From NCBI GenBank assembly GCA_030278955.1, contig JAOANR010000001.1, positions 25,611,120 through 25,675,119 on the forward strand: DNA of 64,000 nucleotides, in the 5' to 3' direction. The notes beneath the pieces were generated by a model, which was not told the origin of the DNA, did not search any database, and saw nothing but the letters and a program-made list of their open reading frames with translations. The position numbers and the translations under genes were made by a program. This document shows, in pieces, positions 13,291 to 62,837 of this stretch. Origin of the DNA: Hygrophila difformis. Its lineage: Eukaryota; Streptophyta; Magnoliopsida; Lamiales; Acanthaceae. Within the stretch, counting starts at the first letter, position 1; every line of letters starts with the position of its first letter.

Positions 13291-13302
13291 GCTCTGATAC
13301 CA
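13291..13302 (-). other. Primer-binding site, initiator tRNA-Met
   Basis: The minus strand reads TGGTATCAGAGC next to the 5' LTR, the standard complement to plant initiator tRNA-Met used by most gypsy elements. Confidence 0.95.
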
Positions 13303-36398: not shown

Positions 36399-36500
36399 TA
36401 AATACACGATTTGTAATTATTGTTTATAATTATAATCTGAATTCAATACTTTCAGATTCTCCTCTATTTATTAAAATCCTAAACTAGAATATACTAGAAC

Positions 36501-36542
<42 letters not shown>

Positions 36543-36578
36543 TTCAATCTAGTTATATTATTCGATCTAATTCCAATC

Positions 36579-36642
<64 letters not shown>

Positions 36643-37073
36643 TCGAACTAGATTGAATTAGACCGAACAAAAAATAATCAAATCAGACAAGATTGGAATA
36701 AAGACCAAAATAGTCCCTAACTATTTTTTATTCAAAAATCATCCAGAATCTAGTTGAATTTATTAAATAGACCTATAACTATTCGAATTATAATCATTTT
36801 TGTCGTAGGCCACGTAGAAAACTCCATCTTGATCATTTCCTAGCTAATTAATCATGTGGCTTCCGCACATAGAAAATCCTTCTGAACATTGAAAACTCTT
36901 TCAGCACATAGAAATCACCATTTTAATATTTCAGTAACTGCTGATTCAGCTCCAAATCGAATTCCCAACTAATGGTTGGAAAATAGACACGCTTCACGGT
37001 CACCCCCACTTCTACATGTGGGTATCGGTTAGCAGTGAATGGAGATTTTTTCCGCTCCACCAATCATATATAA
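36399..37073. other. Intergenic with inverted AAT/ATT microsatellites
   Basis: (AAT)n at 36502-36542 and (ATT)n at 36580-36642 face each other across about 40 bp, so the pair can fold back. Nothing coding is seen in the remainder to the Helitron end. Confidence 0.6.
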
Positions 37074-37469
37074 TAGATTTTTTCGCCCGCGTACGGGCGT
37101 TGAACTAATATGCAGATATAAAATATGAATATAGTTTTTTTTTTATTACATAAGATTCAAAGTCTTTTACTTAAATAGTTTTTGAATGCATGCAACCAAA
37201 ATTTAAAAGGAAAACCTACAATCAGGTAGACATAATATAAATAAATTATTTCTACTGTTAGTAAACTAAATATATAGTGTTTGCTTTCATATCTAAAATT
37301 ATGAGAGCAAGTGGAAAATAAATACACTTTAACTATTCAAAATTAGAAGAAAAAAAAAAGATATATTTTGCATTATTAAGGTTGTCCGGAGTAGAATGAG
37401 TTATTGTATTAAAGTGCAATGGTTGATGTGATGTTTGTCTGAAGGAGTAAAAATTTTCTAAATAAGGAA

Positions 37470-37545
37470 ATGTGATAATTGTAGTAGGACGGACCAAAAT
37501 AGAAATGAGACATTTAAAATGGGACGGAGGGAGTATTATTTTACT
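37470..37545. repeat. Truncated Stowaway-like MITE end
   Basis: GGGACGGAGGGAG followed by TA at about 37530-37545 is the consensus terminus of plant Stowaway (Tc1/mariner) MITEs. No matching CTCCCTCCGTCCC end was found to the left, so this is a partial copy. Confidence 0.55.
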
Positions 37546-38580
37546 TTCTAATATGTTGTACATTTTGACTATTATCCCTAAAGTTTTTAATTATTTATAT
37601 TTTTTTATTATCTTTTTATCATTTAAAACATATATTTTGTTAAGTAATGTATTTTAAATTTTATTGTCATTAGTTTTTATGGACTTATCTTTAAATTTAT
37701 AAAATAAATTTTAATTATAATTACGCTTTGATTATCTGTTAATTTTTAAAATAGTATTTTAGTCCATAACATTTTGTCCAATTTTTTCTTTTGCCTTATT
37801 GATTATGAAAAAGTTTGGTAGTTAATATTTTTTTAATTTAATTAGATTTTTATTATTTTTTAATTAATTATTATTATAAGCCCTAAATTAAATTTATACT
37901 CCGATACTAAATTTTTTAGGGGTACGTTTTTTTAGCACATTTTTTATCATTCTAAATTATTTTTTCTATCTGGATAATGATATTTATTGTTTGAGAAATT
38001 CCAATGAAATAAAATTAGAAAAATAAAAAATATGAAAAATAATGAAATTGAAATAAAAATTTCCAAATAAAGTAAAATAAGAATCTAAATATAATTAATA
38101 ATGAAAATACTTTCTAAAATTAAAGATATTACAATAAATATAATTTGATTTATCATTCATTATATGTTATTTTATTTTATTAAATAGTATAATCTAATTT
38201 TATGAGTTAATTATATTTTTTGTATTTAAGTTAAAAGGAAAATTAATTACTAAATATATTATTTTTAAATTGGTGTGCTAATAGGAAACTCTTCAAACGT
38301 GCATGAATGGATGGAATGATATTATTTTCAAATTTTAGGACAAAAATGAGATATTTTTAGAATTGATGAGGTCGAATTTAATATTTTAAAAGGTAGAAGG
38401 GGAGAATTTTAAAACTAAATAAAAAAAAATTTAAGGTGTATTTTTGTAAAAAAAATAAGGGTACAAATGACCCATCTTGTTTTTTTTTTTTGGATGAGCC
38501 GAAGCCAGGCAACAAAGCGAAAAAGAGAAAAAGGAAAACAGAAGCAAACAGGCAAACAACAGGCCAATAGACAGCCCAAA

Positions 38581-41500
38581 CTAATGACTAGGGGAATAAA
38601 AGGCCGAAGCATCTCTCGCCAAATCCCCATCCACGAAGTCCGGCGGGAAAGCCCATGTCGTGAAGAAATCTTCCACAGAAGCCCCATGTCTAGCTAGCAT
38701 ATCCGCCTCTGAATTTCCCTCTCGGTTCAAATGATGAATGTGGCAGTCGATAAATTTCTCCTTAGTACTCTTAATGCGGTGGATGAGGGTAGCCATCGGA
38801 TGAAACAACGAAGAGGTGTTGAGAGAGTTGATCACCTCCATTGAGTCGGAATAGCAGAAGCACTTACTGACTCCTTGCTGGACTAGAAAATCCAATCCTT
38901 CTGCCAATGCAGTTAGCTCAGTCTGTAGGATGGATTTGGTACAAAGGTGGCCACAGCCTACTCCTTTCCAGCCACCTGCCTCGTCACGGTGAACAAAGCC
39001 AAATCCGGCACGCCCCGACGTGCCAAAAATGCTCCCATCAACATGGAGGATGTCAACCCCCGTTACAGCAGGATTCCATGGCAATCGTTGAGGTCGAGGA
39101 GCCTTCCTCGGTCTTCTATCCGCTGCATTTGCTAAGTCAGCTACCAATCGAATGATGTCTCGAACGATCACCCATTCTTTTTTAGCCTCGCCCCGAAAAA
39201 TCCTAGCATTTCTCTTTGTCCAAATATACCACAGTCCTGCCACCATCGTATGACCAAATTTATGGACCATAGCAAAAAGAAGATGTCTGATGTTTTCCTT
39301 TGGCATTCCCTCGCAGTCCATTGGTACTATGATTTGGAGCTTTGTCCAGATATGCCAAGCCCAAGGGCATGAGAACAAACAGTGACTCCAATTCTCCTCC
39401 TCAACGCCACAAATCACGCACAAAGGGGAGTTGGTTAGCTGCCGTTTGAACCTAGTTGAATTCACCGACAAAGAATCCTTACAAATCAGCCATATCAAAA
39501 AACCGATCTTTTCTGGGATGTTTGCGGACCACATCCAACTCCAGCCTTTTCTTGTTTCCTCGGTGTTGGAGAGTAACTTATATGCCGAGCTAACTGAATA
39601 GAAACCATTTTTAGAGTTCTTCCATATCGACATATCAGGGACCAGCTCATGAAGGATAGGAGGGGGGCCAAGCATATATCACAGAGCAAAGTTGCCGGGA
39701 GCTGGGTGTGCACCTCCTGCCACTGCCAACGACCATGTTTTATGACATTATTTACCTTGAGTTCAATGTCTCTAGTTTCAACAAAAGGGACGATGGATCC
39801 AATATGCACATCTTTCCACCATTCTTCAAACCACAAGGAAAGTTCCCCTTTTCCAATTCTAAATCTGTAACCAGGCTTGACATACTTCACTACTTTTTGC
39901 ATTAAGCCACCAAGTTTCGAGTTGTGCATATTGCCAGAAAGAAATTTTCCACCCCTGCCAATCCCAAAATCTTTGAGAAGTTGGACCCAAATTTTCTCAG
40001 GAGAGTGCATGAAATTCCACACAAGCTTACCCAGTAATGCTATGTTCATGATCCTGGCCTTGCGTAAACCGAGTCCCCCCTCCTTCATAGGAATAGCACA
40101 AGTGTCCCATTTCACCAAATGAAGACCCTTTTCCTCCCTATCTTTCCATAAAAATCTGTTTATCCTCCTATCAATGGCAAAGCACGTCAACTCAGGGAGC
40201 CAATGCACTTGCATGAAATATGTACGGATGGCCGCCAAGACGGCCTGACAAAGTGTAAGGCGCCCCGCTTTGTTAAGTAGTTTACACGCCCATCCTTCCA
40301 ATTTTGGATCAATCTTGTCGATGATGAAAGCGAAATCTCCACACCGTCGCCTGCCCGTGAGCATTAGAAAACCCAGGTACTGGCCAAGAGATTCAACCAC
40401 TGTAATGTTGAGATTTTGCTCAATCCAACTTCTATTCCCATAGTCAACAGCTCTAGAAAAATATAATAAGGATTTCTGATGATTTAAATGGAGGCCAGAC
40501 GCCTTGGAGAAATATTCAAGAGTCTTAGTGATGCACTGGATACTCCCCTTGTCGACCATTGATCCGAGTATTAAGTCATCCGCAAAAATCAAGTGAGAAA
40601 CTCCAACCCCATCCCTTGTCAGCCTAATCGGTTTCCGGTAACCTTGGGACACTAGCCGATTGATTTGAATAGATAGCTTCTCCATAATGATTAAAAAGAG
40701 GTATGGGGAGATCGGGTCCCCTTGACGAAGCCCTTTACCCGGCTTAAATTCCTCCAAGTGCCTCCTATTCCATAGGATAGAAAAGGATGGGGACGAAACA
40801 CATAACATGATTAATTTTCTAACCTCATTAGGGATCCCCAATTCCATTAAACACCGATCAAGAAAATCCAATGAACGTTGTCGTAAGCCTTGGCCACATC
40901 GATTTTAAGAATGATAGCCTTCACCCTGGAGTTGCAACTCGACAGGTTGGAAATAAGTTCTTGCAGAGTTAGTGCATTATCCATGGGGCCTCTCCCCGGG
41001 AGGAAAGCGGCTTGAAGGTGTGAGATACAACTCTGCAAATAGGGTTGAATCCTGTTTACTAACACCTTAGTCATAAATTTATAAAGCACATTACACAAGG
41101 TAATAGGCCTAAATTCTGACATCCGAGAGGGAGAAGCAATTTTGGGTATAAAGGCAGATAAATGCCTTCGTAATTTCAGTAGGAATATAGCCCTCGTTGA
41201 AGGCTTTGTTTATGAATGAATGAACTGAGCTCCCCACTACTTCCCAAAAACATTTGAAGAAATAACCCGGAAACCCGTCCGGACCCGGGGCCGAGAAGTT
41301 GTTAGTATCTTTAACCACCGTCTCCACCTCCTGAAAAGTAACTTCCCTGCCAAGCTTAGCTACTTCCTCCACTGGAAAAGCCTTTAGCGGTGGTAGATGA
41401 ATCATGTCTCCCTCATTTGCCAATATGTGACTTAGACTAACTCGGGGGCAAGAGTATAGTTGTTGAAAAAATACTCTAGCATGGCTTTGTAGGTCCTCCT

Positions 41501-42700
41501 CATTTTCACACCAAACCCCATTAGATAAGAAAAGTCCATGGATGCGGTTTCGATGCCCCTTAGACTTTGCACGCGCATGGAAATAAGCCGTGTTTCTGTC
41601 TCCCAACTGGATCCATTTATCACGGGCTCTTTGAAACCAATAGATTTCCTCTTGTCGTAAGATCTCATCATATTCCCTACGCAGCTCATCTTCCAACAAA
41701 TTAAGGCGAACTGAGTCCACTTTTTCCAGCATCCTAGTCACTCTCTTCATCCTGTTCAGAATTTTAACTTTTCTCCATTTAAAATTCCCAACTTTCGATT
41801 TGCTGAAGTTCACCGATGCCTGCCTCAGTTCATTCAGCTTATGAGGAATAAAGCCAGTATTACTACTCCACGAATTTTTCACCACCTCCTCATAATCCTT
41901 GTTCTCCGTCCACGAAGCTTGCCATCGGAAAGGAGCGCCATCCCCCCTCCTAATGATTGGACCGCAAGAGAGCAATAAAGGCAGGTGGTCCGATCCAACG
42001 CACGGGATAGGCTTAACGAAGCCTCCAGAAAACATAGTCACCCATTCACTATTGATCACACATCGATCCAAACGCTTGTGGATTCGTCCGGTGTCACCAA
42101 TCGGCCTAGACCAAGTGTGACATCCCCCTTGTGTGTTAATTGTAGATAATCCGCAATCATGCAAAATGTTCCCCAATTCTTCCGCTCTCGCTAAATTATA
42201 TATTCCACCCCGGACTTCATCAGAGCTTAGAATTTGATTAAAATCACCGATGGTAGCCCATGGACCATTAATTTTACCTGCTAAATTCAACAAATTCCCC
42301 CAACACAGCTGCCTATTCGGATACTAAGGAGGAGCATAGATGGCAGTAAGATACCACGAACAGTTCCCTTGAGTTAAACACACGGTGCTCATCCTATCCC
42401 GAACATCAAAAGTACTAATCTGGAATTTTAACCCATTTCGAATTAAAATTCAAATTCCTCCAGCCTTCCTAATTGCTTCCTGAATACAAACTTCTTCATA
42501 ACCTGCTTGGAGAAACAAGTTCCGGGTTCGAAGGAAAGTTGATTGTGGCTCAAAATGCAAACCAAATCCGGTCCATGAACACGCAAAATTTCCTTAATCA
42601 TTCGCCTAACAGACTCGCCAATGATTCCCCCCACATTCCACGCCAAAATTTTACAATTCTTGAAGATCGTATTAATCATGATAAACAAAAGATTGTAACG
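38581..42700 (-). pseudogene. LINE B ORF2: endonuclease, RT, RNase H with frameshifts
   Basis: The endonuclease starts near 42690 (CKILAWNVGG), continues with GDFNQILSSDE and SDHLPLLL, and breaks between about 42440 and 42293. RT: NNFSAPGPDGFPGYFFK, FRPITLCNVLYKF, AAFLPGRGPMDNA, KAYDNVHW, GLRQGDPISPYLF and catalytic FADDLILG. The RNase H block (38581-39675) keeps HVDGSIFGTSGRAGFG, TELTALAEGL, CYSDSMEV and NREGNSEADMLARHG, so all four acidic sites look present. Frameshifts lie near 42440, 41120, 40860 and 39500-39670. It is a fairly young copy that would need several repairs and is not functional as it stands. Confidence 0.9.
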
Positions 42701-44093
42701 AGCAGTTTCTACAGCCATACCTTCGGCCATGGTTGTGTCTTCCCCCTCCGTTTTAGGGGAATTTTCATCTAAGGGGTCGCGAGTTAGACCCTTCATGTTC
42801 GGCACTTCAATCACCTCCGTCACCACCTCCGATGTGTCAGTAGATCTCTGTATCTTAGAGCTGCTTTGGTCGCCTCCCGTTTCTTCAGTACAGCCCTGTT
42901 TGGTAGCCACCAATTCTGTAACTGGGCTCTTACCCTTGGGCCGAGGCTTTTCTCTTTTAACCATAGTATTAGTTATGGGCTTCAATAGTTTGCCTTTCCC
43001 TATCGGGGGCTTGGGCCTTATTTTTTGTTTCAAACTGGACACCCCATCCAAAGGTTTAGGTTGGGCTCCTTTCCCTCCATTACCTTTCTTCCCACCACTT
43101 TGTTTCTTCTTAACGACCATAATCCACTCACCTCCTTTTGGTTGTGGAGGATTATGCTGATCTTTTTCTGCAAACTGTAACAGGTCTCTAACCCCCGATG
43201 ACTCGTGACTTTCCTTCCCAGTGCATAAATTTGTCTCGGGCAGATGATCCCCTTCCTCGTTCCTAGCACTTTCCTTTTCGGTATCCTTCACAAAGTCAAC
43301 CTCCATTGCTTTAAAATCTTTTTTGTCTTGTTTGCTAAAAACAGGTCTGTCTGTTTTTTCCTCTGCATGGGCTAGTTTAGCCACCCCTATTCTCCTGTGA
43401 CAGCTTCTCCTTCCCAACTAGTACACCCACCGGAGCTTCCTCCTTGGTCGGAGACGCCTCATCCTCTTTCACTATTCCATAAGTGCATTTTGTGTTCGAA
43501 TGGCCATATCTTTGGCAGTCCTTACAAAGAAGATGAAGACCATCGTAAGCTACTTTTTGCCACCTATTCCCAACCAAGATACTTGAAACCACCGGCAAAC
43601 TTAAATCAATCTCTATGCAAACCCTTGCATATTTTCCTCTATCAACCCCTTTGGTCATTGCATCTACCCGAATGCATCTTCCCAAAGCCGCTGCCATGCT
43701 CGTGATTAACATTTCATCAAAATATTCAAAGGACAGCCCTGGAAATCGAGCCCACACCAATGTTTTCTTAGGTGTTTCCTCATCCGCAATGAAATTTGGT
43801 CGCCAAGGACACACCGTAAGGTAGCTATCAAAAATCATCCACGGTCCTCCACTTAGCACTTTCAGTCGATCCTCACTTGTGTCAAACTTGATTAGATAGT
43901 ATCCCGCATCCATATCCACCATTTTGAACTTATTGGCCATGTTCCACAGACGAGACAGTCTCTCAAGGAGGGCAGAATACCCCACCCTCTTCCCCAAAAT
44001 AGAAATAATGATAGCATCCTCAAAAGGCTTACACATCTGTTCATGTAGGCGCGAATCTATGACAAGCTTTGGTTTGAGTCGATCACCGTTCAA
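42443..44093 (-). pseudogene. LINE B ORF1 (gag-like, DUF4283 and CCHC)
   Basis: 44093-43377 holds the DUF4283 region (GKRVGYSALLERLSRLW, WARFPGLSFEYFDEML) and an intact CCHC knuckle (CKDCQRYGHSNTKC). A frameshift in 43377-43417 moves into a second frame to 42443. That frame contains a Lys/Pro-rich basic linker and then runs straight into the endonuclease start without a stop, so ORF1 and ORF2 are fused in this copy. The original start codon may lie a little upstream of 44093. Confidence 0.75.
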
Positions 44094-51735: not shown

Positions 51736-51749
51736 GGTTTAAGTTTTCG

Positions 51750-51934
51750 GGAAATTAAAGAAAAACCCACCAAAATTTTCAAAGTTTAAGATAGGTACCC
51801 AATTGAATTTTTCTTTAAGATAGGTACCCAATAGTTTTATTTCATTTAAGAATGGTACCTAATAACCAAAACTATAAAATGAGTTTAACACTTCTCTAAA
51901 AAAGTGCCCAAAAAACACACCCCCTCTAAAAATT
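51750..51934. repeat. Flank of the viral copy: triple GGTACC-containing repeat
   Basis: A unit of about 30 bp, (TTT)AAGATAGGTACCCAAT, occurs three times (about 51788, 51816 and 51846, the last diverged). It follows ACCCACCAAAATTTTCAAAG. Similar blocks in inverted order lie at 62546-62640 on the far side of the virus. Whether the flank is host, another element or viral intergenic DNA cannot be decided by eye. Confidence 0.55.
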
Positions 51935-51947
51935 TGGTATCAGAGCC
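51935..51947 (+). other. Viral primer-binding site, initiator tRNA-Met
   Basis: TGGTATCAGAGCC, the conserved minus-strand primer site of Caulimoviridae. By convention it marks position 1 of the circular genome. The first frame starts only 21 bases downstream. Confidence 0.9.
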
Positions 51948-51968
51948 TAAGTTGCGATTTTAGGGCTT

Positions 51969-52223
51969 ATGGCTAATGACGGATTAAAAGATAATCAAAA
52001 CGCAATTAAATTAAATGACAATATTAATTACGAAAAATTTTTAATAATTGATATTGAAAAGAAAAGGCTATTCAAAAACCAAACTAAAGATTGTAAGATC
52101 TGTAAACAAAATAAAATAAAAATCAAAAGAATAAAACTCAAGAAAAATAGAACTTTTAAAAATTATTGCAAACTAATCGTAAGATTAGAAGCTTTAAGAC
52201 AACACTTAAAAACTCATGAATAA
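51969..52223 (+). CDS. Viral ORF 1: small basic protein with CX2C
   Basis: 84 residues and very basic in the second half (KIKIKRIKLKKNR). CKIC at about 42-45 forms a CX2C pair, with a further Cys and His pairs downstream (CKLIVRLEALRQHLKTHE), so a zinc-binding or nucleic-acid-binding role is possible. No family recognised. Its end overlaps ORF 2 by 8 bases (ATGAATAA), typical of caulimovirid stop-restart translation. Confidence 0.7.
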   Translation: MANDGLKDNQNAIKLNDNINYEKFLIIDIEKKRLFKNQTKDCKICKQNKIKIKRIKLKKNRTFKNYCKLIVRLEALRQHLKTHE

Positions 52224-52617
52224 AATGTTAACAAATAAAAACATGGATATACAAAGAAGTCTTCAATCAATTGAAGCAAAACTAGATAAGTTAGAATTAT
52301 TAGGAAAACAAAATAATACAAATCTTAAAGTAATATTAGAAAACCAAACATACTTATCAACCCAGTATGATAAATCATCCAGTGGAATGAAAAATTTATC
52401 TAAAACCATAACAACACTTCAATATGAAAGTTCTAAACTAGTTAATGATATCCCAAATCCGAGAAAAATCATTAACCATAGTGAGGAATTAAAACAACTA
52501 CAAGATAAGGTTGAAAAACTTGATAAAGAGATAAAAGAAATTAAAAATATTGTTGAAAACAATATTGAAAATGTAAATGAAATGTGTAACAAAATTATAA
52601 AAATCATTAAAGGATAA
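52216..52617 (+). CDS. Viral ORF 2: coiled-coil protein, virion-associated-protein-like
   Basis: 133 residues, almost wholly helical and charged. It has heptad-like runs (LQSIEAKLDKLELL; LKQLQDKVEKLDKEIKEIK) and no cysteine-rich motif. Size, position before the movement protein and coiled-coil content resemble the caulimovirus virion-associated protein and the badnavirus ORF 2 product, which bind capsids. Homology is inferred from shape only. The stop TAA shares its last A with the next ATG (TAATG at 52615-52619). Confidence 0.7.
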   Translation: MNKMLTNKNMDIQRSLQSIEAKLDKLELLGKQNNTNLKVILENQTYLSTQYDKSSSGMKNLSKTITTLQYESSKLVNDIPNPRKIINHSEELKQLQDKVEKLDKEIKEIKNIVENNIENVNEMCNKIIKIIKG

Positions 52618-53096
52618 TGGAAACAGCTTTGAAAGAGGTTAAAGAAACAATAGAAAACTTTAAACAAGAAATTAATAATAAATTCAAAGAAATAAACAAA
52701 GAATTAGTAGAAATAAAGCTAAATGTTAATAATCTTCATAAGAAGATTGGCGAAATAACAGACCATAATAAAACAAATAATACAAATATTAGTCTAATTG
52801 ACAAGAAAATAAAAGAGCTTGTAACAACTGAAATACTAAAGAAAAAAATTGATGATGTACATGTTCAAATGGAAAACATGAAAAAATATCAAGACCCTGC
52901 ATTAAGAATAGCCATTGAAAGCATAGATGAAAAACTTGAAAGAATACAAGCTGTTAGAATACCTGAAGATAATACAATAAAACAACTAGCTGAACAAATT
53001 GCAAAATTACCTGCAGAAGCTAGAAGGAAAACTAAACCACAAGAAAAACTGAACTTCTGGGTTGTAAAACCAGACGAAAAATATTTACAAAAATGA
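52617..53096 (+). CDS. Viral ORF 3: second coiled-coil protein
   Basis: 159 residues. An N-terminal coiled coil (about 1-105; VKETIENFKQEINNKFKEIN) is followed by a C-end with IAKLPAEARRKTK, a basic Pro-containing tail like the DNA-binding tail of virion-associated proteins. It may be the true virion-associated protein, with ORF 2 as its partner or paralogue. It overlaps the movement protein start as ATGA (53093-53096). Confidence 0.7.
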   Translation: METALKEVKETIENFKQEINNKFKEINKELVEIKLNVNNLHKKIGEITDHNKTNNTNISLIDKKIKELVTTEILKKKIDDVHVQMENMKKYQDPALRIAIESIDEKLERIQAVRIPEDNTIKQLAEQIAKLPAEARRKTKPQEKLNFWVVKPDEKYLQK

Positions 53097-54058
53097 GTAG
53101 GAGATCATTTTCTCTTACTAATGAATCCCAAAACAGTCTAGTAGAAAGAAATAATTCTCAAAGGATTGAAAGCTCAAACTTTGAAAAAACCTTAATAGAT
53201 AGGATGTTTAGAGAAAAAACCAAACTTGAAGAAGGGCCAACAATAATTGAAGAAATAATTGACCCTGATATTGAATTTGAAAACTTCAAGAAAAGAACGT
53301 TAATCCAATTGGAACCAAGATTATTGTATGACCAAAGATTCCTTAATTGGAACACAGGTTATTACAAATATCATTATACGGAACCAATAAGCTGTCTAAA
53401 AGATGACAAAAAACTAATAAAATTAATAAGCAATAATGAAGCAATTAGGCTTCAAAGACAAGGACAAAAATACATGCATATGGGATTAATTTCCATAGGA
53501 GTAAAAGGTTTAACTAGAAAAAACTTAGGAACTAAAGTCCTAATGACTGTTCTAGATACAAGGTGGACTAATCCAACCCAAGCTATCATAGGGTTAATGG
53601 AAATTGATATGAACCCTAATGTAGGAGTATGTTATTTGGCACCAGATTATATGATACAAATAACAGATTTTATGAAGCATATCCAAATAGGAATTCAGAC
53701 TCTAGGATATGAAGAAATGGAAACTGGTCACAACCTAATGATATGTGTAGGCTTCTTAGGAAGAATAACAAACAATGGTCAAACCAGACATAAAACAAAA
53801 ATTGAAACTGTGGTAAGTATCATAGGAAGTGAAGGAGTAAAAATGATAGGACCAACTGAAATATCATCAGAAGAAAATGCTGGGAAAAATTGGGATCTAT
53901 CAAAATTCTTTGAAAAACCAAATGTTAAAAACTTAACCCCAAAAAATGTAAATTACTTCATAAACTCCAGAGGAGAAACGTCAGTAAGATTTAATGATTA
54001 TGAAACTGCAAAAAGACCAATAGATTTTACAGAAGAAGAAGGTCAGGAAAATGAATAG
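53093..54058 (+). CDS. Viral ORF 4: movement protein (30K superfamily)
   Basis: 321 residues, the usual size for a free-standing caulimovirid movement protein that opens plasmodesmata by forming tubules. The core at about 120-230 shows the family pattern: YMHMGLISIGVKGLTRKNLG, then VLMTVLDTRW with the conserved Asp, the turn IIGLMEIDMN, and NLMICVGFLGR. N- and C-ends are charged and variable. In badna- and tungroviruses this domain is fused to the polyprotein. Here it is separate and overlaps the next frame by 8 bases (ATGAATAG). Confidence 0.88.
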   Translation: MSRRSFSLTNESQNSLVERNNSQRIESSNFEKTLIDRMFREKTKLEEGPTIIEEIIDPDIEFENFKKRTLIQLEPRLLYDQRFLNWNTGYYKYHYTEPISCLKDDKKLIKLISNNEAIRLQRQGQKYMHMGLISIGVKGLTRKNLGTKVLMTVLDTRWTNPTQAIIGLMEIDMNPNVGVCYLAPDYMIQITDFMKHIQIGIQTLGYEEMETGHNLMICVGFLGRITNNGQTRHKTKIETVVSIIGSEGVKMIGPTEISSEENAGKNWDLSKFFEKPNVKNLTPKNVNYFINSRGETSVRFNDYETAKRPIDFTEEEGQENE

Positions 54059-57000
54059 ACAAATGAAAAGGTTTATCGTAGAAAAACCAGTAACAGATAA
54101 CTATGTAAAATATGAAGGAAAACATATATTCCACCCTAGTGAAGAAGAAGTGGAAAGAATTGCTAAAGACATTCAACATATTTGTTTAAAAACAAGAAAA
54201 TTTGAAAACTTTAAAAAAGGAAAAATTCTAAATAAAAGAGAGTACCATGACAGGTATGAAAGAGTTTTCTCACAACATGTACATTCTGCATTAACTAAAA
54301 AATTCAAAAACAAAGGAATATTACCTCACAATTGTCAAGATTGTAAAATTGATCTTGATAGAAGATATTCTGATAAGTTAAAACATATGATCCATTTAAT
54401 AGAATGTCCAAAACATAGTGGATATTTTGAAAATTGGATAGAAAATTATGAAGAAATGATAAGAGAAATATCAAAACTAAATGAACAAAAACAAGAATTA
54501 AAGGATAAAATGAAAAGAAAAAATAAAGAATGGAAGAATAATTTAGAAGATATTATTGAGAAAGAAGTACAGAAAAGATTACAAAAAATACAAATAAAAG
54601 AAGAACAACAAGCAGATATAGAAGCTCACTTGTTCCTAAAGGAAAACTCATCAGAAGTAGGACAAAGTTCTGATAATACATTAATGGAACAATATATGGG
54701 AGACCATATCTCCTTACATTCTGAGAAAACAAATAAAACAGCTAAAGAATTCATGAACAAAGATATTGTCATGAAAAATACAGGAGACAGTATAACAAGA
54801 GTCCCTGGAACTCCCTTTGCCCCATACCAAAGAGGGACTGAGTGGAGACCTGGAACTAATTATACTGGAAACAATTCTAGACACTCAATCACACATGTTC
54901 ATCCAGAATATCCTTATGGAAAGATACAACCTGGGATGATAACAAAACCTAGAGGAATTAGGCAACCCTTAGAAAGAGGATATTATCATAACCCAGCAAT
55001 ATTAGAAGTAACAAATGTAAGCCCTCAAGAATGGGGCTCAGTAATTGCAAAATGGAAAAACATAGTTGTAGCTGATTACATCAAAAACAAAAATGATTAT
55101 AATGATACAGCTGAATCAATGTATGGATATCTTGAAACCTATTTAGGAGAATTCGCACAGTCAATGTGGGAAGTATTTAAAAGAGACTATCCAATAGATT
55201 ATCAAGACTTAATAGAAAGAGGACCGAATCCTTATAACTTTGTAAATAAAATATCAAGTCTAATAACGGGTGAAGATGGTAATTCAGGACATATAACAAC
55301 ACAAATGGATGCCTTAATCCATCTAGACCAAATGCACCTAGATGACTTATATGGAACAGTAGACTTCTTAAATGAATATGTCTACTATACAGGCCTAGCA
55401 GGAGGTGCTTTTAACCAAGAGTTAGGTGAAAAATTATTTATGAAAATACCAAGACCAATTGGTCAAGAAATTCAAGATACATGGAATAAGATGGTTGAAA
55501 AGAATCCCCAACAATACACTATTAGTATGAGGGCCGTTCATGTGGTAAAAATATTAAAAGATAAGTGTACAAATATAATAGCACAAAAACAACTTAAGAA
55601 AACTGATTATTCATTCTGTAAGAGGATATACACTCCTCAACGATATGGTAGGCCAGAGCCATTAAGGAAAAAACCTAAATTCATAACAAGAAAGAAGTAT
55701 TTCATAAAACAATCAAATAGTAGGAAACCTTTCTTAAAACAAAAACATCACGTCAGAAAATATAATCCTAGTAGAAATTATACAAAGAAACTTGCTTGTT
55801 TCACATGTGGTGATGAAAGCCATTTGGCAACAGCATGTCCTAAAAGAAAAAACCAACATTCAAGAGAAGCAATTCTTACAGAATGTATACAACAAGATAT
55901 ATTGGATGTAGACTCAGATGTTTCTGAGACTGAAACAATATATAGTATAGTAACAGTGGAAGAAAATGTTATGGAAGAACAAGGGGATGATGATCCCTAT
56001 GAATTGATAAATATGCTTGCAAATGAAAACTCGTATAATGGTATCACATATAAAGAGTATATGATGCCATATGAAACTGAGTATATGATGAGAGAAATTA
56101 ATGAATGCGAAAACCATAATTGGCTTTTCAGGGTAGGCACTGATTCTACACCTTGTATAAAATGCTCTTATTACCCATCAAGAAAACTTAGAGCTAAATG
56201 TACAATATGTCATGTAGAAATATGCCAAATATGCTTGTTAAAATATTATAAAATTAAATTCCCCGAAGAAATGCCAATAACAAAAATTGATGATAATTAT
56301 ACATTCATCACAAAAAGAATAGATATAATAGAAAGAAAACTTTTTGATTTACAAGATATAATGAATCCTAAGGAATTAAAAACCAGAATTGAAAACATAG
56401 AAGAAATCTTAGAAGAATATAATATGTTGAGTCCTAAAAATACGGAAAATAAAGGAAAAGAAGTCCCTGAAGAAGAATCTAATAATGAACAAAATCCTAG
56501 TACGGAGTACATGTTAGCACAAAACCCTGAGTACATACCTGTGTGCCACGATCCATCATCATTAACTACATTAAGGGTACCAATAATCTTTAAATTAAGA
56601 GAATTGGTATTTCGTACTAATGCAATAATCGATACAGGATGTACTAGAATAATAATAAATGAGAAACTTATCCCAGAACATCTACAGAAAAACTTAACAA
56701 AACCCATTAAATCAGAATTAATGGATGGAAGAATATCATATACAACAAAACAACCTATTTCAGGTGGACAGATATTCTTTGAAACCAATTGTGGAATATC
56801 AGAACCCTATGGAGTTCCTGATAATTCATATATAAAAGACTTAGTAATAAATGCAGATGTAATCTTAGGATTACAATTCTTCTTACAAAATAATGGAGGA
56901 TTATTTATTACAAAAGATTATATCCAAATTGTTGAAAAAGCAACTTTGGCAATGTTTGCACCTAGTATTAGTAATGCGGGAACCAAGCTTTTAACAACAT

Positions 57001-58763
57001 CAGAGTTGCGAGAGAAGCGTGGTGGAGCCCCTACTAATACAAAAACAAAAAATAAAAAACTTTTAAAAGAAAAAGATATTGAAAATTGTAAATGCAAAAT
57101 AAAAGGAGCATGTAAACAAACTTGTAAAGAAAACATACAAATTACAGAGTTTGAAGAAGAATATATTCCTGAAACTCCAAAACTGAAAGAATTAATAAGT
57201 ATAACTAGATTTAAGCCTGAAGAAACCATAACAAAATGGATTGAGAGGTTAGAAAAATCCCAAATTATTGGAGATAACATCCAGAAATATTGGGAAAAAG
57301 ATGGAACAATATGCAAGCTTGAAATAATAAATCCAGAATTGAGAATCTCAACTGCAGAAATAAATCCTACAAATCTGGATATAGCAGATTTCAAAATGCA
57401 TATTGATGAATTAAAAGCTTTAAAAGTAATTAGAGAATCAAACTCCAGACATAGGTCTGCAGCTTTTATTGTAAGAAAACATTCTGAAATTGTAAGAGGA
57501 AAATCAAGAATGGTCATTAATTATAAAAGACTTAATGACAATACAAAAGATTTTGCTTACAATATACCAGATAAAACAGTCTTAATAAATAGAATTCAAG
57601 ACTCAAAAGTATATAGCAAATTTGACTGTAAGTCAGGATTCTGGCAAGTAAAGATGCATCCTGAGTCAGTTGAATGGACTGCGTTCACATGTCCAGAAGG
57701 TTTATTTGAATGGTTAGTAATGCCATTTGGACTAAAAAATGCACCAGCTATATTTCAACAAAAAATGGATAAAATTTTTAAACCATACCAAAAATTTGTT
57801 TTGGTATACATTGATGATATTCTAGTATTTTCAAAAAATAGTACTGAACATATGAGTCATCTTGATACAGTGTTTAGGCTATTTGAAAAACATGGAATAA
57901 TCATCTCAAAGAAAAAGATGGAAATTAATAAAACTAAAATAGCATTCCTTGGGGCAGAAATTGGAAAAGGAAAAATAAAACTCCAAGATCATATTGCTAA
58001 AAAGGCTATTGAATTTCCCGATAAAATGGAAGATACAAAACTATTACAACAATTTTTGGGATTGGTTAATTATGCTAGACCATACATTAAAAACTTATCC
58101 TCATTAACAGGATCATTATATAACAAACTGGGAAAAAACGGCCAAAGATATTTTAATCAAGAAGATATAAAAAATGTACGAAAAATTAAAGAAGCATTAA
58201 AAACACTTCCAGAATTGGTTTTGCCAGAAGATAGTGATTATCTTATTGTGCAAACTGATGGATCACATGAAGGATGGGGAGCTATCCTTTTGCGAAAAAA
58301 GGATGTCTACTCACCTAAAAGTAAAGAAGAAATTTGCCAATATGCATCAGGGAAATATAGAGAGAAGGGAAACCTTTCCTCAATTGATGCAGAACTGTTG
58401 GCAATAAAATACGCACTTGATAAATTTGAACTGTTTTTAACAGGAAAACCAAGATTCACAGTAAGAACTGATTGTGAAGCCATAGTAAAATTTCATAGCC
58501 AACTCCAAGAAAAAAGATCAATGTCTAGGAGAAGGTGGTTGAATTTTACAGATGTTATTAGTCAGAAAGGCTACAAAATAAAATTCGAACATATTAAAGG
58601 AGAAGATAACAAAATTGCTGATATACTATCTAGAATTCTGATTAAAGAAAGGGAAAAACCATTATATGACACTGAATTTAAAAACGAATCAATTGATAAT
58701 TATGATGAAAATGACGAGGAAAAATATAAATTAAAATGGGATCAATTTTACAGGGAGGACTGA
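54051..58763 (+). CDS. Viral ORF 5: coat-protease-RT-RNase H polyprotein
   Basis: 1570 residues, uninterrupted. Residues ~90-125 hold a CX2C...H...C cluster (CQDCKID) and ~140-200 a coiled coil. The coat core is ~320-550, with CP-type zinc knuckle CFTCGDESHLATAC at ~582. A second Cys-rich module at ~705-735 (CIKCSYY, CTICHVEICQIC) is a feature shared with badna/tungroviruses. Aspartic protease AIIDTGCTR is at ~860 and VILGLQFF follows. RT spans ~1080-1300, with SKFDCKSGFWQV, FEWLVMPFGLKNAPAIFQ and catalytic YIDD at ~1254. RNase H spans ~1400-1530 (QTDGSHEGWG, DAELLAIKYAL, RTDCEAIV, KIADILSR). All catalytic acids are present. The product would package, process itself and reverse-transcribe the viral RNA. 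A 32-base gap separates it from the next ATG. Confidence 0.95.
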   Translation: MNRQMKRFIVEKPVTDNYVKYEGKHIFHPSEEEVERIAKDIQHICLKTRKFENFKKGKILNKREYHDRYERVFSQHVHSALTKKFKNKGILPHNCQDCKIDLDRRYSDKLKHMIHLIECPKHSGYFENWIENYEEMIREISKLNEQKQELKDKMKRKNKEWKNNLEDIIEKEVQKRLQKIQIKEEQQADIEAHLFLKENSSEVGQSSDNTLMEQYMGDHISLHSEKTNKTAKEFMNKDIVMKNTGDSITRVPGTPFAPYQRGTEWRPGTNYTGNNSRHSITHVHPEYPYGKIQPGMITKPRGIRQPLERGYYHNPAILEVTNVSPQEWGSVIAKWKNIVVADYIKNKNDYNDTAESMYGYLETYLGEFAQSMWEVFKRDYPIDYQDLIERGPNPYNFVNKISSLITGEDGNSGHITTQMDALIHLDQMHLDDLYGTVDFLNEYVYYTGLAGGAFNQELGEKLFMKIPRPIGQEIQDTWNKMVEKNPQQYTISMRAVHVVKILKDKCTNIIAQKQLKKTDYSFCKRIYTPQRYGRPEPLRKKPKFITRKKYFIKQSNSRKPFLKQKHHVRKYNPSRNYTKKLACFTCGDESHLATACPKRKNQHSREAILTECIQQDILDVDSDVSETETIYSIVTVEENVMEEQGDDDPYELINMLANENSYNGITYKEYMMPYETEYMMREINECENHNWLFRVGTDSTPCIKCSYYPSRKLRAKCTICHVEICQICLLKYYKIKFPEEMPITKIDDNYTFITKRIDIIERKLFDLQDIMNPKELKTRIENIEEILEEYNMLSPKNTENKGKEVPEEESNNEQNPSTEYMLAQNPEYIPVCHDPSSLTTLRVPIIFKLRELVFRTNAIIDTGCTRIIINEKLIPEHLQKNLTKPIKSELMDGRISYTTKQPISGGQIFFETNCGISEPYGVPDNSYIKDLVINADVILGLQFFLQNNGGLFITKDYIQIVEKATLAMFAPSISNAGTKLLTTSELREKRGGAPTNTKTKNKKLLKEKDIENCKCKIKGACKQTCKENIQITEFEEEYIPETPKLKELISITRFKPEETITKWIERLEKSQIIGDNIQKYWEKDGTICKLEIINPELRISTAEINPTNLDIADFKMHIDELKALKVIRESNSRHRSAAFIVRKHSEIVRGKSRMVINYKRLNDNTKDFAYNIPDKTVLINRIQDSKVYSKFDCKSGFWQVKMHPESVEWTAFTCPEGLFEWLVMPFGLKNAPAIFQQKMDKIFKPYQKFVLVYIDDILVFSKNSTEHMSHLDTVFRLFEKHGIIISKKKMEINKTKIAFLGAEIGKGKIKLQDHIAKKAIEFPDKMEDTKLLQQFLGLVNYARPYIKNLSSLTGSLYNKLGKNGQRYFNQEDIKNVRKIKEALKTLPELVLPEDSDYLIVQTDGSHEGWGAILLRKKDVYSPKSKEEICQYASGKYREKGNLSSIDAELLAIKYALDKFELFLTGKPRFTVRTDCEAIVKFHSQLQEKRSMSRRRWLNFTDVISQKGYKIKFEHIKGEDNKIADILSRILIKEREKPLYDTEFKNESIDNYDENDEEKYKLKWDQFYRED

Positions 58764-58791
58764 AATATTGAGAATTGAATAATATTGTTAC

Positions 58792-58793
58792 AG
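58792..58793 (+). promoter_or_regulatory. Candidate splice acceptor before viral ORF 6
   Basis: The run AATATTGTTACAG ends two bases before the ATG of ORF 6. With the leader donor at 60840 this would give a spliced mRNA for ORF 6, as is known for ORF 4 of rice tungro bacilliform virus. Inference from sequence only. Confidence 0.5.
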
Positions 58794-58795
58794 GA

Positions 58796-60241
58796 ATGGC
58801 AGAAAACTCCCAGAAAAACTCTTTGAAAATCAGCAATGAAAATGGAGTAAAAACCACAGGGATGGTGAAAACCCCAGAGGGATATTACACAATCCCTTCT
58901 AAAACCAGCATCCCAGAGGGGAAGAAAAAAGATAAACTCCCAGAAAAAGGAGTAAAAATCTGCTTTGGCAAAAGAGCAGAAACTGGCAATAATGTAGAGT
59001 TAATCTTATTTGATAACATGAAGTACAGGCCTATCACAGGGTTGAACTACACAGAGGAACAGATCTGCCTTTGTGACAACATCTGGAGAGCATCATTTGA
59101 CAAAAACAACAGCAGGTATATTGTTACTTGTCTCTCTGCTTTAAGCATGTATTTCCAGAAATTTAATAACATAAAACCATTTTTATATTATGTAATCTAT
59201 GAAGGTTATAAAAAAGGAATTTATGATAAAAATGATATTTTACCTCTTAATGAAGATAATGAAAAACCTCTTCATAAAGGATTTTATGACATAGTGTCTG
59301 CAATTCAATTTGCAAAAACCACAATGGGCCCAGATTTCTTTGTAAGCCCAAGTTTGAAAAACATTGTTGATGGTTTGAGACCAAAAACCCAAAATCCTAC
59401 AGGCCCAGTCCAATATTCAATTGGACATTCTTCTAAAACCCACATTGTGTTTTGTGACCATTGTGAAAAAATGGCCAAGGAAGTCTGTAAATATGAAGCC
59501 CAAAAGGCCGAATGGTTACAAAATTTTGAAAACCAAAAAATGAAAACCCTTGAAGCAGAGGCCCAGATTGAAACCCTCACCAAGAAACTTGAAATCCTTC
59601 AAAACCAAAATGAGAAATTGACCTCAAAAATTGTGTCCCTCACACTGAAAACACCAAAGCCAGAAGAAAAACCAGTCTATGGTCCAGAACCCAAACCCAC
59701 CAGTTCTATGACTGCAGTAGAATTGGCAAAAGCCTGGATGCAGCAAAACCAGGAAAATTCAACTCCTGAGGTCTTTAAGGATCAAAAGTTTGAATCTAGT
59801 CCGTCTCAAACGGCAGACGGTAAAGACGAGTCAAGTCCGTTGATAGCTGATGCTTTGCTAAAAAGCATAAGTTCAGATGATTTTGAACCAAACCAGGGAA
59901 GTTCTAACCCTGAGGTCTTTGAGGACCAAAATATTGAACTAAGCCCATCTAGTCCGGTAGATGGTAAAAGCACATTAATTCCGGTTATGGCTGGTAGTTT
60001 GCCAAAAACTATGAGTCCAGTACAGACTGGAAAATTTGAAAACCTCAGTGAAGAAGAAATTCTTCATAAGCTTGAAATGGAACTAAAGCCTACTTTTGCT
60101 GAAGCAATGGCAACCAGAAAAAGTGGAAGGTTTAGTGCACTGGTGGCACTAAGAAAAAATGAAGCAAAATTCCAGGCCAATAAAATTATAAAAAATCAGA
60201 AAAAAGAAAGTGGCGGCCCCCACAATGATGAAGAATACTAA
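58796..60241 (+). CDS. Viral ORF 6: candidate transactivator/inclusion protein
   Basis: 481 residues from the first ATG (MAENSQKNS). The frame is open a little further upstream but without an ATG. Position after the RT polyprotein and size suggest the translation transactivator/viroplasmin or the tungrovirus P4 product. Residues ~85-190 form the most protein-like domain (EEQICLCDNIWRASF, FLYYVIYEGYKKGIY). FCDHC at ~220 starts a CX2C segment followed by a strong coiled coil (~230-285). The acidic middle has two diverged copies of a ~45-residue unit (STPEVFKDQKFESSPSQ / SNPEVFEDQNIELSPSS). The C-end is basic (KIIKNQKKESGG). True homology to known transactivators was not demonstrated. Confidence 0.75.
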   Translation: MAENSQKNSLKISNENGVKTTGMVKTPEGYYTIPSKTSIPEGKKKDKLPEKGVKICFGKRAETGNNVELILFDNMKYRPITGLNYTEEQICLCDNIWRASFDKNNSRYIVTCLSALSMYFQKFNNIKPFLYYVIYEGYKKGIYDKNDILPLNEDNEKPLHKGFYDIVSAIQFAKTTMGPDFFVSPSLKNIVDGLRPKTQNPTGPVQYSIGHSSKTHIVFCDHCEKMAKEVCKYEAQKAEWLQNFENQKMKTLEAEAQIETLTKKLEILQNQNEKLTSKIVSLTLKTPKPEEKPVYGPEPKPTSSMTAVELAKAWMQQNQENSTPEVFKDQKFESSPSQTADGKDESSPLIADALLKSISSDDFEPNQGSSNPEVFEDQNIELSPSSPVDGKSTLIPVMAGSLPKTMSPVQTGKFENLSEEEILHKLEMELKPTFAEAMATRKSGRFSALVALRKNEAKFQANKIIKNQKKESGGPHNDEEY

Positions 60242-60586
60242 TGGAGCCACGAAGAAATGAGCTGGAATTCACAATAAATACCAGCATGTGAAGAAAAGAA
60301 TCCGGAAAAGAAAAAGTCAAGAAGAAAACAAAAATGCTAGTGGAGCCAAAAGCACCACTAACCATGTGAAAGCGGGAATCCAAGGCGGAAAAGGTCAAAA
60401 ATCCGACAAGAGCCATGTGACTCTTGAAAACCGCGTTAATGGGCACTAGGCCCCTCTTTACTACATTATTATATTGTTGTATTATTGTACTAGTTGTTTG
60501 ATTTTTCATCCGAACCTTATCGGATAACTTTGCCACTTGGCACGTTTTTATTGGTTGTTGTGGATTACTTAGATGACATTCCCATC

Positions 60587-60594
60587 TATAAATA
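60587..60594 (+). promoter_or_regulatory. TATA box of the viral pregenomic promoter
   Basis: TATAAATA, followed by AGAGGGATGG and an expected start near 60618. It is the only strong TATA box in the large non-coding region. Confidence 0.75.
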
Positions 60595-60730
60595 GAGGGA
60601 TGGTCTTCACTTGTAACAGACACACTCACTTCTTAGCTCTCTAGCTCTCTAAGGTTTTTGAGACTGCATTCTTGCTACTCTCGAAAGCTCTTTCTCTTTC
60701 TAGTTTTCTTGTATCCTTACCCTTTTCAGT

Positions 60731-60736
60731 AATAAA
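60731..60736 (+). terminator. Viral poly(A) signal just after the RNA start
   Basis: AATAAA lies about 115 nt downstream of the predicted RNA start. The RNA would then have a terminal redundancy of roughly 130-150 nt, as needed for template switching in pararetroviruses. Confidence 0.65.
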
Positions 60737-60805
60737 ATTTCAGTTTGTAAAGAAAGACCCGGTGTGGATTGCTTCCTCTTTTCTTTACTTTCTGAAATAC
60801 AGGGG

Positions 60806-60819
60806 CCCGTCTGAACGGG
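60806..60819 (+). other. Short GC hairpin in the viral leader
   Basis: CCCGT-CTGA-ACGGG is a perfect five-pair stem with a four-base loop in an otherwise AT-rich region, just before the splice donor. Function unknown. Confidence 0.5.
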
Positions 60820-60839
60820 AAAGCCTCTCCTCTCTCAAG

Positions 60840-60841
60840 GT
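60840..60841 (+). promoter_or_regulatory. Candidate leader splice donor
   Basis: CTCAAG|GTATGG is a near-consensus plant donor about 220 nt after the predicted RNA start. It pairs in the circular map with the acceptor at 58793. Confidence 0.5.
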
Positions 60842-61032
60842 ATGGGTTAGTTTATGATTTATGTTATGGTATGATTGTTCTATGTATGGATGATAATGTT
60901 ATAAACATAAGCATGTAACCTTTTAAAACTTAATTGATGAGATATGCCATTAGGGGAGTAAGATAAAAATTTAAAAGGCTTTATGCCATAAAAGCTGTAA
61001 GAAAGACTCGTTAGGGGAACCACAATTCAGGG

Positions 61033-61230
61033 ATGTTTGTTAAACATAATGATGTTTTTGTTACTATTGTCCCTTTTAATTTGCCCCTTAGACCCCCTGC
61101 TTACATTTCAGATCTAGGTCTGGATAATGCTAATTTGAATTTGAAACCCAAAACAGGCCCAGAAAAATATCTCATCAGTGACAGTAATAAGAGGATTGCT
61201 GGCTTAATGTTTATGATAATATTTCCATAA
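61033..61230 (+). CDS. Possible small leader ORF
   Basis: 65 codons. The middle part (DLGLDNANLNLKPKTGPEKYLISDSNKR) has protein-like composition, but nothing is recognised. Caulimovirid leaders usually carry several short ORFs that regulate ribosome shunting, so this may be regulatory rather than coding. Confidence 0.3.
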   Translation: MFVKHNDVFVTIVPFNLPLRPPAYISDLGLDNANLNLKPKTGPEKYLISDSNKRIAGLMFMIIFP

Positions 61231-61400
61231 CAGAGGACAATCGGACCCATGACACATAATCAGAAATTTAACACGACCAAGAGGATAATAGGAGATGGCA
61301 AGTACCTAGTAAGACATCACGACATATAAGTTTTTCGCGCACAAAAACCAGTGTTTTTAAAACTTTTATCTGAAATAACTGATATCTTTTATCAAAACAA

Positions 61401-61823
61401 ATGGAGAATATGACTAAAACTGCTGAAAACTCTAAAACAGATTTGTTTAAAGCAGAAACTTTTGAAAACACAGAAACAAGATTTGTTATTGTACCTTATC
61501 CGAAAACACACTTTCTATGCCAAGAATGTGAAATTTGGCTTATTAGACTGATGAATAAGCGAAATCAAATAGACATGATTTGCAGAAAACAAAGATTATT
61601 TGAAAATATTATAAAATGGAAAGTGACTAAGGAGGCTGAATTTCTAAAAAATGAAATAGAAATTCTAGAAAACAGTTATCAAAAGCATACTAAAATCTAT
61701 AATGTTTTTGAAAAGTTACAGGATAACCATATAAAAAGATGTGAAAACTATTTCATAGCATGTGAATATGAAGAAAAAATGTGGAAAAAATTACAAGAAG
61801 AACATTTAGCCAGAAATAACTAA
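61401..61823 (+). CDS. Viral ORF 7: small helical protein with CX2C
   Basis: 140 residues. FLCQECEIWL gives a CX2C pair at about residues 40-43, with further Cys at MICRKQR and KRCENYF. The rest is charged helix (EAEFLKNEIEILENSY). It lies downstream of the leader, so in the circular map it is the first main frame of the pregenomic RNA. No family recognised. The stop TAA overlaps the next ATG (TAATG at 61821-61825), so translation is coupled. Confidence 0.65.
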   Translation: MENMTKTAENSKTDLFKAETFENTETRFVIVPYPKTHFLCQECEIWLIRLMNKRNQIDMICRKQRLFENIIKWKVTKEAEFLKNEIEILENSYQKHTKIYNVFEKLQDNHIKRCENYFIACEYEEKMWKKLQEEHLARNN

Positions 61824-62137
61824 TGGAAGCACGAACACTTTTTGATATTTGTCCAGAATGTGGAAAACTTGGAGAAACCATGTGGAAAACAGAAAAAGAA
61901 ATAAAAGACCTTAAAGATTCAATTATAAGGTTAAAAGAATATAAAGAAGACGAAGAAGAAGAAGTACAAGAACTCATATATGGGTTAAACCATGAAGAAG
62001 AAATAAATATCATTCGTAATTCAATACACAGATATGAAGAAGTGATTAGTTACCAATCATCTGACCTTAAAACAAAAATAGAAGAATTGAATACTTCCAA
62101 AACAGAATTCATTAACCATATCAAAAACCAACATTAA
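61823..62137 (+). CDS. Viral ORF 8: small acidic coiled-coil protein with CX2C
   Basis: 104 residues. ICPECGKLGE near the N-end is a zinc-ribbon-like CX2CG knuckle. It is followed by charged helices (KEIKDLKDSIIRLKEYKEDEEEE) and a second coil. It resembles ORF 7 and part of ORF 6 in having CX2C before a coil. No known family is assigned. Two bases separate its stop from the next ATG. Confidence 0.65.
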   Translation: MEARTLFDICPECGKLGETMWKTEKEIKDLKDSIIRLKEYKEDEEEEVQELIYGLNHEEEINIIRNSIHRYEEVISYQSSDLKTKIEELNTSKTEFINHIKNQH

Positions 62138-62139
62138 AA

Positions 62140-62394
62140 ATGACCTATAAAACAATAAGAGACTACAGTAAATGGGAGAAAACTGCAATTGAAAGATATC
62201 GCATTAAAAAAGAAATTGTGAAAATCCAAATCAAAGCAAAAATAAAATGCTTACAACTCTTAAACAGAAAAAATCTCATACTAGAAGAATTAGATTTAAG
62301 TTTTTGGATAAATGATGAAATCAACAACCTACAGGCATATGAAAAGGGAATAGACCGGGAAAGAAAACAGTGGCAGGTTAATTATACCGGGTAA
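62140..62394 (+). CDS. Viral ORF 9: small basic helical protein
   Basis: 84 residues, basic and helical (KKEIVKIQIKAKIKCLQLLNRKN), with one Cys. The frame closes at TAA within the start of a long A run, so its native C-end may have been changed by growth of the poly(A)/(AAT)n tract at the integration edge. Function unknown. Confidence 0.55.
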   Translation: MTYKTIRDYSKWEKTAIERYRIKKEIVKIQIKAKIKCLQLLNRKNLILEELDLSFWINDEINNLQAYEKGIDRERKQWQVNYTG

Positions 62395-62413
62395 AAAAAA
62401 AAAAAAAAAAAAA

Positions 62414-62453
<40 letters not shown>
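62393..62453. repeat. Poly(A) followed by (AAT)n at the viral right end
   Basis: A run of about 22 A then about 13 AAT units. It may be viral A-rich DNA expanded by slippage, or filler formed at the integration junction. The AT-rich stretch to 62540 is similar low-complexity DNA. Confidence 0.8.
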
Positions 62454-62457
<4 letters not shown>

Positions 62458-62540
62458 TAAACAAATAAATAAATAATAAAAACAATAATAAACAATATAA
62501 TATATAAAATACAAACAAGCAAATAAAAATAAAATATAAA

Positions 62541-62660
62541 TGCAAGGTACCCAACTCAAAGTTTTGAAAACATTCGTGGGTCTAACCTAAAGGATGAAAC
62601 TTTTAGGTACTAAACTTAAAGTTCCTATTGTTGGAGGGTATATATCTCCAAAAACCCCTT
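62541..62660. repeat. Right flank, inverted relative of the left viral flank
   Basis: Read on the minus strand, blocks such as AGTACCTAAAAG, ACCCACGAATGTTTTCAAA and GGGTACCTT appear. They match the order and spelling of ACCCACCAAAATTTTCAAAG and GGTACCCA at 51765-51805. The match is partial. Confidence 0.45.
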
Positions 62661-62837
62661 AAGTTTTTTATACTAATATTATTAATATTATTACTTATTA
62701 TTTATTTATATTTAAATAGATCATCATCATCATCGCCCTAAATCGTAAATCGTAACTCGTAAATAAATATAAATAAATATATAACCTAAAATTATTGTGT
62801 AAAATTTTAAAATTTTTCGCCCAATGAACTGTTTTAT

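What the first reader, a model, noticed from the sequence alone, without database searches (positions are those of the whole stretch)
51935..62394. Endogenous pararetrovirus with nine intact frames and an unfamiliar gene order
A complete caulimovirid genome with no stop or frameshift in about 2,900 codons is rare among endogenous copies. The order (three small frames, free movement protein, coat-protease-RT-RNase H polyprotein, candidate transactivator, intergenic region, three small frames) and the ~10.4 kb size do not match the genera I know. It could be a new genus. Intact frames raise the question of whether the copy can be expressed or give rise to episomal virus.
Basis: partly seen in the sequence, partly recalled or inferred. 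Interest (0 to 1): 0.92.

Follow-up and report, generated by a model that had tools for sequence, protein, structure and literature searches.

The report
Plant pararetrovirus with transposon-like ends
A plant DNA virus related to the tungro and orendo viruses sits in this genome in many young copies, most of those read with fixed ends and a 9-letter copy of the host target on each side, so it seems to insert like a jumping gene and not by the accidental joining usually assumed for such viruses.

Summary
The virus is real and its nine frames are open, but its limits and nature were misjudged. The inserted unit is 51748-62658 (10,911 bp), flanked by the 9-bp duplication TTAAGTTTT. I compared the window copy with 40 others from the same 915-Mb genome. 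Both ends could be recognised in 32 of 41. Of these, 29 had an exact 9-bp duplication and 31 at most one mismatch; mismatched controls gave 1 exact in 992. The ends are short imperfect inverted termini (GGG...CCC) of three types; 5' and 3' types matched in 32 of 32, although distant parts of the interior are recombined. This is what Mutator-like (MULE) DNA transposons do, not known endogenous caulimovirids. Proteins are under strong purifying selection between copies, and some copies on different chromosomes differ by 0.12%. So this looks like a pararetrovirus that multiplies with its own proteins and is inserted by a transposase. None is recognisable in it; a host MULE acting in trans is my best guess, unproven. 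By RT it is a separate branch in the badna/tungro/orendo/yendo clade; a new genus is possible, not shown. The five full-text searches that were answered listed no pararetrovirus described this way.

The parts
51739..51747 (.). left copy of 9-bp target site duplication TTAAGTTTT
   Evidence: identical to 62659-62667
51748..51876 (+). 5' terminal segment, type B (CGGGAAATTAAAGAAAAACCC...)
   Evidence: copies of types A, B, C differ here and become alike at 51877; the end is found next to viral core in 30 of 30 loci read
51877..51934 (+). start of the core shared by all three end types
   Evidence: BLAST border at 51877 in most type A and C copies
51935..51946 (+). tRNA-Met primer binding site TGGTATCAGAGC
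   Evidence: motif recalled
51969..52223 (+). ORF1, 84 aa, Cys/His-containing, unknown
52216..52617 (+). ORF2, 133 aa, coiled-coil-like
52617..53096 (+). ORF3, 159 aa, coiled-coil-like
53093..54058 (+). ORF4, movement protein
   Evidence: PF01107 2.6e-10; 35-37% to movement domains of orendovirus-like proteins
54051..58763 (+). ORF5, coat - A3B protease - RT - RNase H polyprotein
58796..60241 (+). ORF6, transactivator/viroplasmin candidate
   Evidence: 30% over 257 aa to P0011, 1e-25; no Pfam match
60587..60594 (+). TATA-box-like TATAAATA, candidate start of genomic RNA
   Evidence: read; role inferred
60731..60736 (+). AATAAA, candidate poly(A) signal about 140 nt after the TATA box
   Evidence: read; role inferred
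61401..61823 (+). ORF7, 140 aa, CxxC, unknown
61823..62137 (+). ORF8, 104 aa, CxxC, unknown
62140..62394 (+). ORF9, 84 aa, unknown, most divergent between copies
62394..62540 (+). A-rich tract of variable length
62541..62658 (+). 3' terminal segment, type B (...ATATCTCCAAAAACCCC)
62659..62667 (.). right copy of 9-bp target site duplication TTAAGTTTT

Best explanation
A caulimovirid lineage that carries transposon-like ends. Shown: fixed short inverted termini, 9-bp duplications of AT-rich targets, many young copies, conserved proteins, recombined interiors. Inferred: the genome is transcribed from a circular form in which the two ends abut just before the primer site; its own RT copies the RNA into new circles; a DDE transposase, most likely of a host MULE acting in trans, cuts at the abutting ends and inserts the DNA. 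In the chromosome the candidate RNA start (60587) lies downstream of ORF6, so a full-length redundant RNA needs a circle or a head-to-tail pair. Whether the cycle runs inside the germ line or through infection is open.
For: 9-bp duplications at fixed ends in 29 of 32 copies exactly, 31 of 32 with at most one mismatch, control 1 of 992 (one more is exact after a one-base shift). End types match 32 of 32. RT: dS up to 0.227 with dN at most 0.013 among 21 copies, no stop in 20 of 20, which were chosen for long frames. Even the closest copies show 25 silent to 7 replacement changes where 3.8 replacements per silent change are expected. Coat region dN/dS 0.12-0.15 in 5 older copies. Distant regions are uncorrelated in divergence, r 0 to 0.3, as expected of template switching. 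Closest pair 4 differences in 3,396 sites on different chromosomes. MULE transposases abound: 150 scored of 2,395 candidates, 76 of them with one identical score by my count. MULEs typically make 9-nt duplications and may end in GGGG/CCCC (passages of PMC4486113).
Against: No transposase or integrase is recognised in the element. The one MULE copy read (L139, 8 kb) has no end like the viral ones and no clear TIR pair. The viral ends are short and imperfect, while many MULEs have long TIRs. Matching ends could be kept by selection alone. Recombination could be gene conversion between DNA copies. No circle, RNA or transposition was seen. Motif GTAC is denser in most terminal segments (2-5 per about 280) but not in two (1 and 0).
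Confidence: 0.6

Rival explanations
1. Passive cargo: a MULE captured a viral genome once and spreads it by DNA transposition; the viral genes do nothing.
For: Ends and duplications of MULE kind; Pack-MULEs that carry captured sequence exist (abstract listing). 14 of 40 type-A ends have no coat hit in the capped list, so non-viral elements with these ends are not excluded.
Against: Strong purifying selection in RT, coat and several small frames, also between the youngest copies; type-B ends were never seen without viral core in 30 loci read, one of them with only 53 bp of it.
Confidence: 0.17
2. The element encodes its own, unrecognised recombinase, alone or with orphan frames ORF1, ORF7, ORF8 (Cys/His-rich) as end-binding subunits.
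For: Six small frames without match among the relatives at hand; ends found with the virus; ORF1, ORF2, ORF7, ORF8 are mostly conserved.
Against: The small frames (84-159 aa) are short for a DDE nuclease; Pfam finds none. ORF9 and ORF8 carry frame-changing indels in some copies.
Confidence: 0.15
3. Ordinary accidental integration by break repair, with the duplications a coincidence or tied to AT-rich repeats.
For: Targets are 95% A+T, and endogenous caulimovirids favour TA repeats (PMC4241990, PMC10377300, passages).
Against: Same base-exact ends and 9-bp duplications in 31 of 32 copies (at most one mismatch) against 10 of 992 in controls.
Confidence: 0.02

Closest known systems
Orendovirus-like endogenous elements of grasses (Oryza P0041, Lolium P0023, Triticum P0140) and tungroviruses
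   Same: coat-protease-RT-RNase H polyprotein; RT-RNase H 63-69% identical to the grass proteins and 50% to Agapanthus tungrovirus
   Different: movement protein on its own frame, whereas P0014, P0020, P0021 list PF01107 in the polyprotein; three frames downstream of the non-coding region; transposon-like ends; outside their clades in the tree
Yendovirus-like dicot sequences and metagenome contigs (P0010, P0129, Taraxacum P0148)
   Same: nearest rows by path in the tree; P0010 66% in RT-RNase H
   Different: no supported grouping with the window; their ends are unknown to me
MULE DNA transposons, e.g. MuTAnT (PMC4486113)
   Same: 9-nt duplications, G/C-run termini, AT-rich targets (passages)
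   Different: no MULE transposase inside; carries a full reverse-transcribing virus; MuTAnT TIRs are longer
Teratorn, piggyBac-herpesvirus fusion of fish (PMC10175614)
   Same: a whole virus genome between transposon ends that multiplies in the genome (passages)
   Different: herpesvirus, encodes its transposase, about 180 kb
Florendovirus, endogenous PVCV, eBSV
   Same: high-copy or intact endogenous caulimovirids (PMC4241990, PMC10377300, passages)
   Different: fragmented, rearranged or tandem copies; no fixed ends or target duplications reported in the passages seen

Membership tests
Caulimoviridae | coat, A3 protease, RT, RNase H, 30K movement protein | tested here: met
Caulimoviridae | tRNA-Met primer site | tested here: met
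   exact 12 bases at 51935, site recalled
Caulimoviridae | circular dsDNA in virions | not testable with these tools
   no reads or particles
Orendovirus / Tungrovirus | RT-RNase H inside the genus clade | tested here: not met
   outside the 14-row grass clade (100/100) and the 4-row Agapanthus tungrovirus clade (100/98); own place unresolved
Orendovirus / Tungrovirus | movement protein in the polyprotein | tested here: not met
   separate ORF4
Badnavirus | RT inside the clade | tested here: not met
   outside the 19-row clade with named badnaviruses
Genus-level unit of Yendovirus+Orendovirus in PMC13308828 | at least 62% RT amino acid similarity | tested here: inconclusive
   60-69% to several relatives, but over RT-RNase H and not with that paper's reference set
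MULE DNA transposon | 9-bp target duplication | tested here: met
   31 of 32 copies with at most one mismatch
MULE DNA transposon | terminal inverted repeats | tested here: inconclusive
   about 8 bp plus scattered similarity in types A and C; type B weaker
MULE DNA transposon | MULE transposase in autonomous members | tested here: not met
   none in the element; present elsewhere in the genome
LTR retrotransposon | long terminal repeats and integrase | tested here: not met
   no terminal direct repeat among the 20 families shown of 22; no integrase domain

The most novel reading that the evidence does not exclude
A living or very recently living pararetrovirus that has adopted regular chromosomal integration: the abutting ends in its circular genome are a transposase substrate, so it alternates between reverse transcription and cut-and-join insertion, and has spread to hundreds of copies while under selection as a virus.
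Probability: 0.45. Interest if true: 0.95.

Novelty: new variant of a known kind. Interest (0 to 1): 0.88.

Why it matters
Endogenous caulimovirids are thought to arrive by accident: PMC4241990 calls a virus-controlled process unlikely, PMC10377300 calls the mechanism speculative, and PMC10175614 calls integration and propagation of endogenous pararetroviruses unexplained (passages read). Fixed ends with 9-bp duplications give a concrete, testable answer for one lineage, and a plant counterpart, with a reverse-transcribing virus, to the Teratorn kind of virus-transposon hybrid.

Tried and rejected
Borders at the primer site and ORF9: rejected. A tail made by LINE-type retrotransposition from the A-rich tract: rejected, the tract lies inside the 3' end. 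LTR structure: none seen. IMG/VR viral contigs: two scans, no relative. Type A 3' and type C ends were not searched with success. One MULE copy read: no viral-like ends. Dropped rows: L001, L004, L008 (minus-strand loci read on the plus strand only), L028 and L034 gave nothing; copies c5 and c19 were left out; 9 of 41 copies have an end not recognised. The age of about 84,000 years for the closest pair uses a recalled rate of 7e-9 per site and year.
Full report
What is there. The nine frames exist as described and the domains make it a complete caulimovirid. ORF6 is a viroplasmin candidate only by a 30% alignment to P0011; Pfam does not see it. ORF1, ORF2, ORF3, ORF7, ORF8 and ORF9 have no match among the RT-bearing relatives listed, a narrow test.

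Copies. The window lies in a 915-Mb genome of 246 contigs, unnamed to me. A search with the coat domain scored 150 of 1,681 candidates; all 150 pass the cut-off and by my count 61 have open frames of 1,579-1,591 aa.

Ends. I fetched both junctions of 20 plus-strand copies with long frames, then of 10 minus-strand copies with long frames and 10 with short frames. Homology does not stop at the primer site or at ORF9 but at sharp termini: type A GGGAAAATACC...GAATTTTCCC, type B (the window) CGGGAAATT...CAAAAACCCC, type C GGGAAAATTATTT...TTGCCC. Read at fixed positions, 32 of 41 copies, the window included, have both ends; 29 have an exact 9-bp duplication, 31 at most one mismatch, and the last (c12) is exact after a one-base shift. 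Pairing the left flank of one copy with the right flank of another gave 1 exact and 10 with at most one mismatch in 992 pairs. The duplications are 95% A+T. By group, both ends were found in 28 of 30 long-frame copies, 3 of 10 short-frame copies and the window.

Window copy. Target duplication TTAAGTTTT at 51739-51747 and 62659-62667; element 51748-62658, 10,911 bp.

Selection. In the RT-RNase H part, 20 copies and the window differ by up to 0.227 at silent sites but at most 0.013 at replacement sites. On a minimum spanning tree, close pairs (six changes or fewer) sum to 25 silent and 7 replacement changes and wider ones to 120 and 34, where neutrality predicts 3.8 replacements per silent change. 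The 20 copies were chosen for long frames, which removes stops but not replacements. Five older copies with stops give dN/dS 0.12-0.15 around the coat. ORF1, ORF2, ORF7 and ORF8 mostly show the same; ORF9 is weaker (about 0.4-0.5 between groups) and has frame-changing indels. So the proteins mattered for the spread.

Mosaics. Distances in ORF1, RT and ORF7-9 are nearly independent (r from 0 to 0.3), while neighbours such as ORF1/ORF2 (0.84) agree. End types A and B recur with the same ORF7-9 groups and different RT groups. Yet 5' and 3' types matched in 32 of 32. This fits ends that lie next to each other in a circle, but selection for matching ends would give the same.

Age. The closest pair fetched, on C8 and C11, differs at 4 of 3,396 sites, about 84,000 years at a recalled rate of 7e-9.

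Who inserts it. A 9-bp duplication with G/C-run ends is typical of MULEs (PMC4486113, passages); retroelement integrases of plants leave about 5 bp (recalled). The element has no recognised nuclease for this. The genome is rich in MULE transposases: 150 scored of 2,395 candidates, 76 with one identical score by my count. One such copy read over 8 kb has no viral-like end, so the donor is not found. Type-B ends were attached to viral core in 30 of 30 loci read; for type A, 14 of 40 could not be tied to a listed coat hit.

Relatives. In a 74-row RT-RNase H tree the window sits in a 62-row group with badna-, tungro-, orendo- and yendo-like sequences (100/100), apart from the Caulimovirus and rose yellow vein virus side, with an end branch of 0.36 and no supported sister. 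Best identity is 69% over 230 columns to a rice protein. PMC13308828 (outline and sections 6, 7, 9 read) sets genus-level units at 62% RT similarity and lumps Yendovirus, Orendovirus and a Vitis group; the window could fall in that unit. Genus status is open.

Literature. Searches answered; none listed a pararetrovirus with inverted termini and target duplications. Subscription papers are not held. PMC9794742 (passages and section 9) reports many identical RT copies in some genomes without giving a mechanism for them; fixed ends may be worth looking for there.

Noticed in passing
8533-12612 (-): Ty3-type retrotransposon with gag, protease, RT, RNase H and integrase domains; an exact tRNA-Met primer motif lies at 13291 on the same strand.
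   Followed up: no
34699-43417 (-): LINE-like remains: DUF4283, RT, zf-RVT and RNase H pieces.
   Followed up: no
59746-60020: 131-nt direct repeat, 71% alike, inside ORF6: an internal duplication in the transactivator candidate.
   Followed up: no
62394-62540: A-rich tract between ORF9 and the 3' end, very variable in length between copies.
   Followed up: partly
own genome: A young MULE transposase family: 76 of 150 scored places share one score and many share a 353-aa open frame.
   Followed up: partly
L128 (copy at C10:46554032): The 5' flank holds a second, reverse piece of viral core of 35 bp, perhaps a nested fragment.
   Followed up: no
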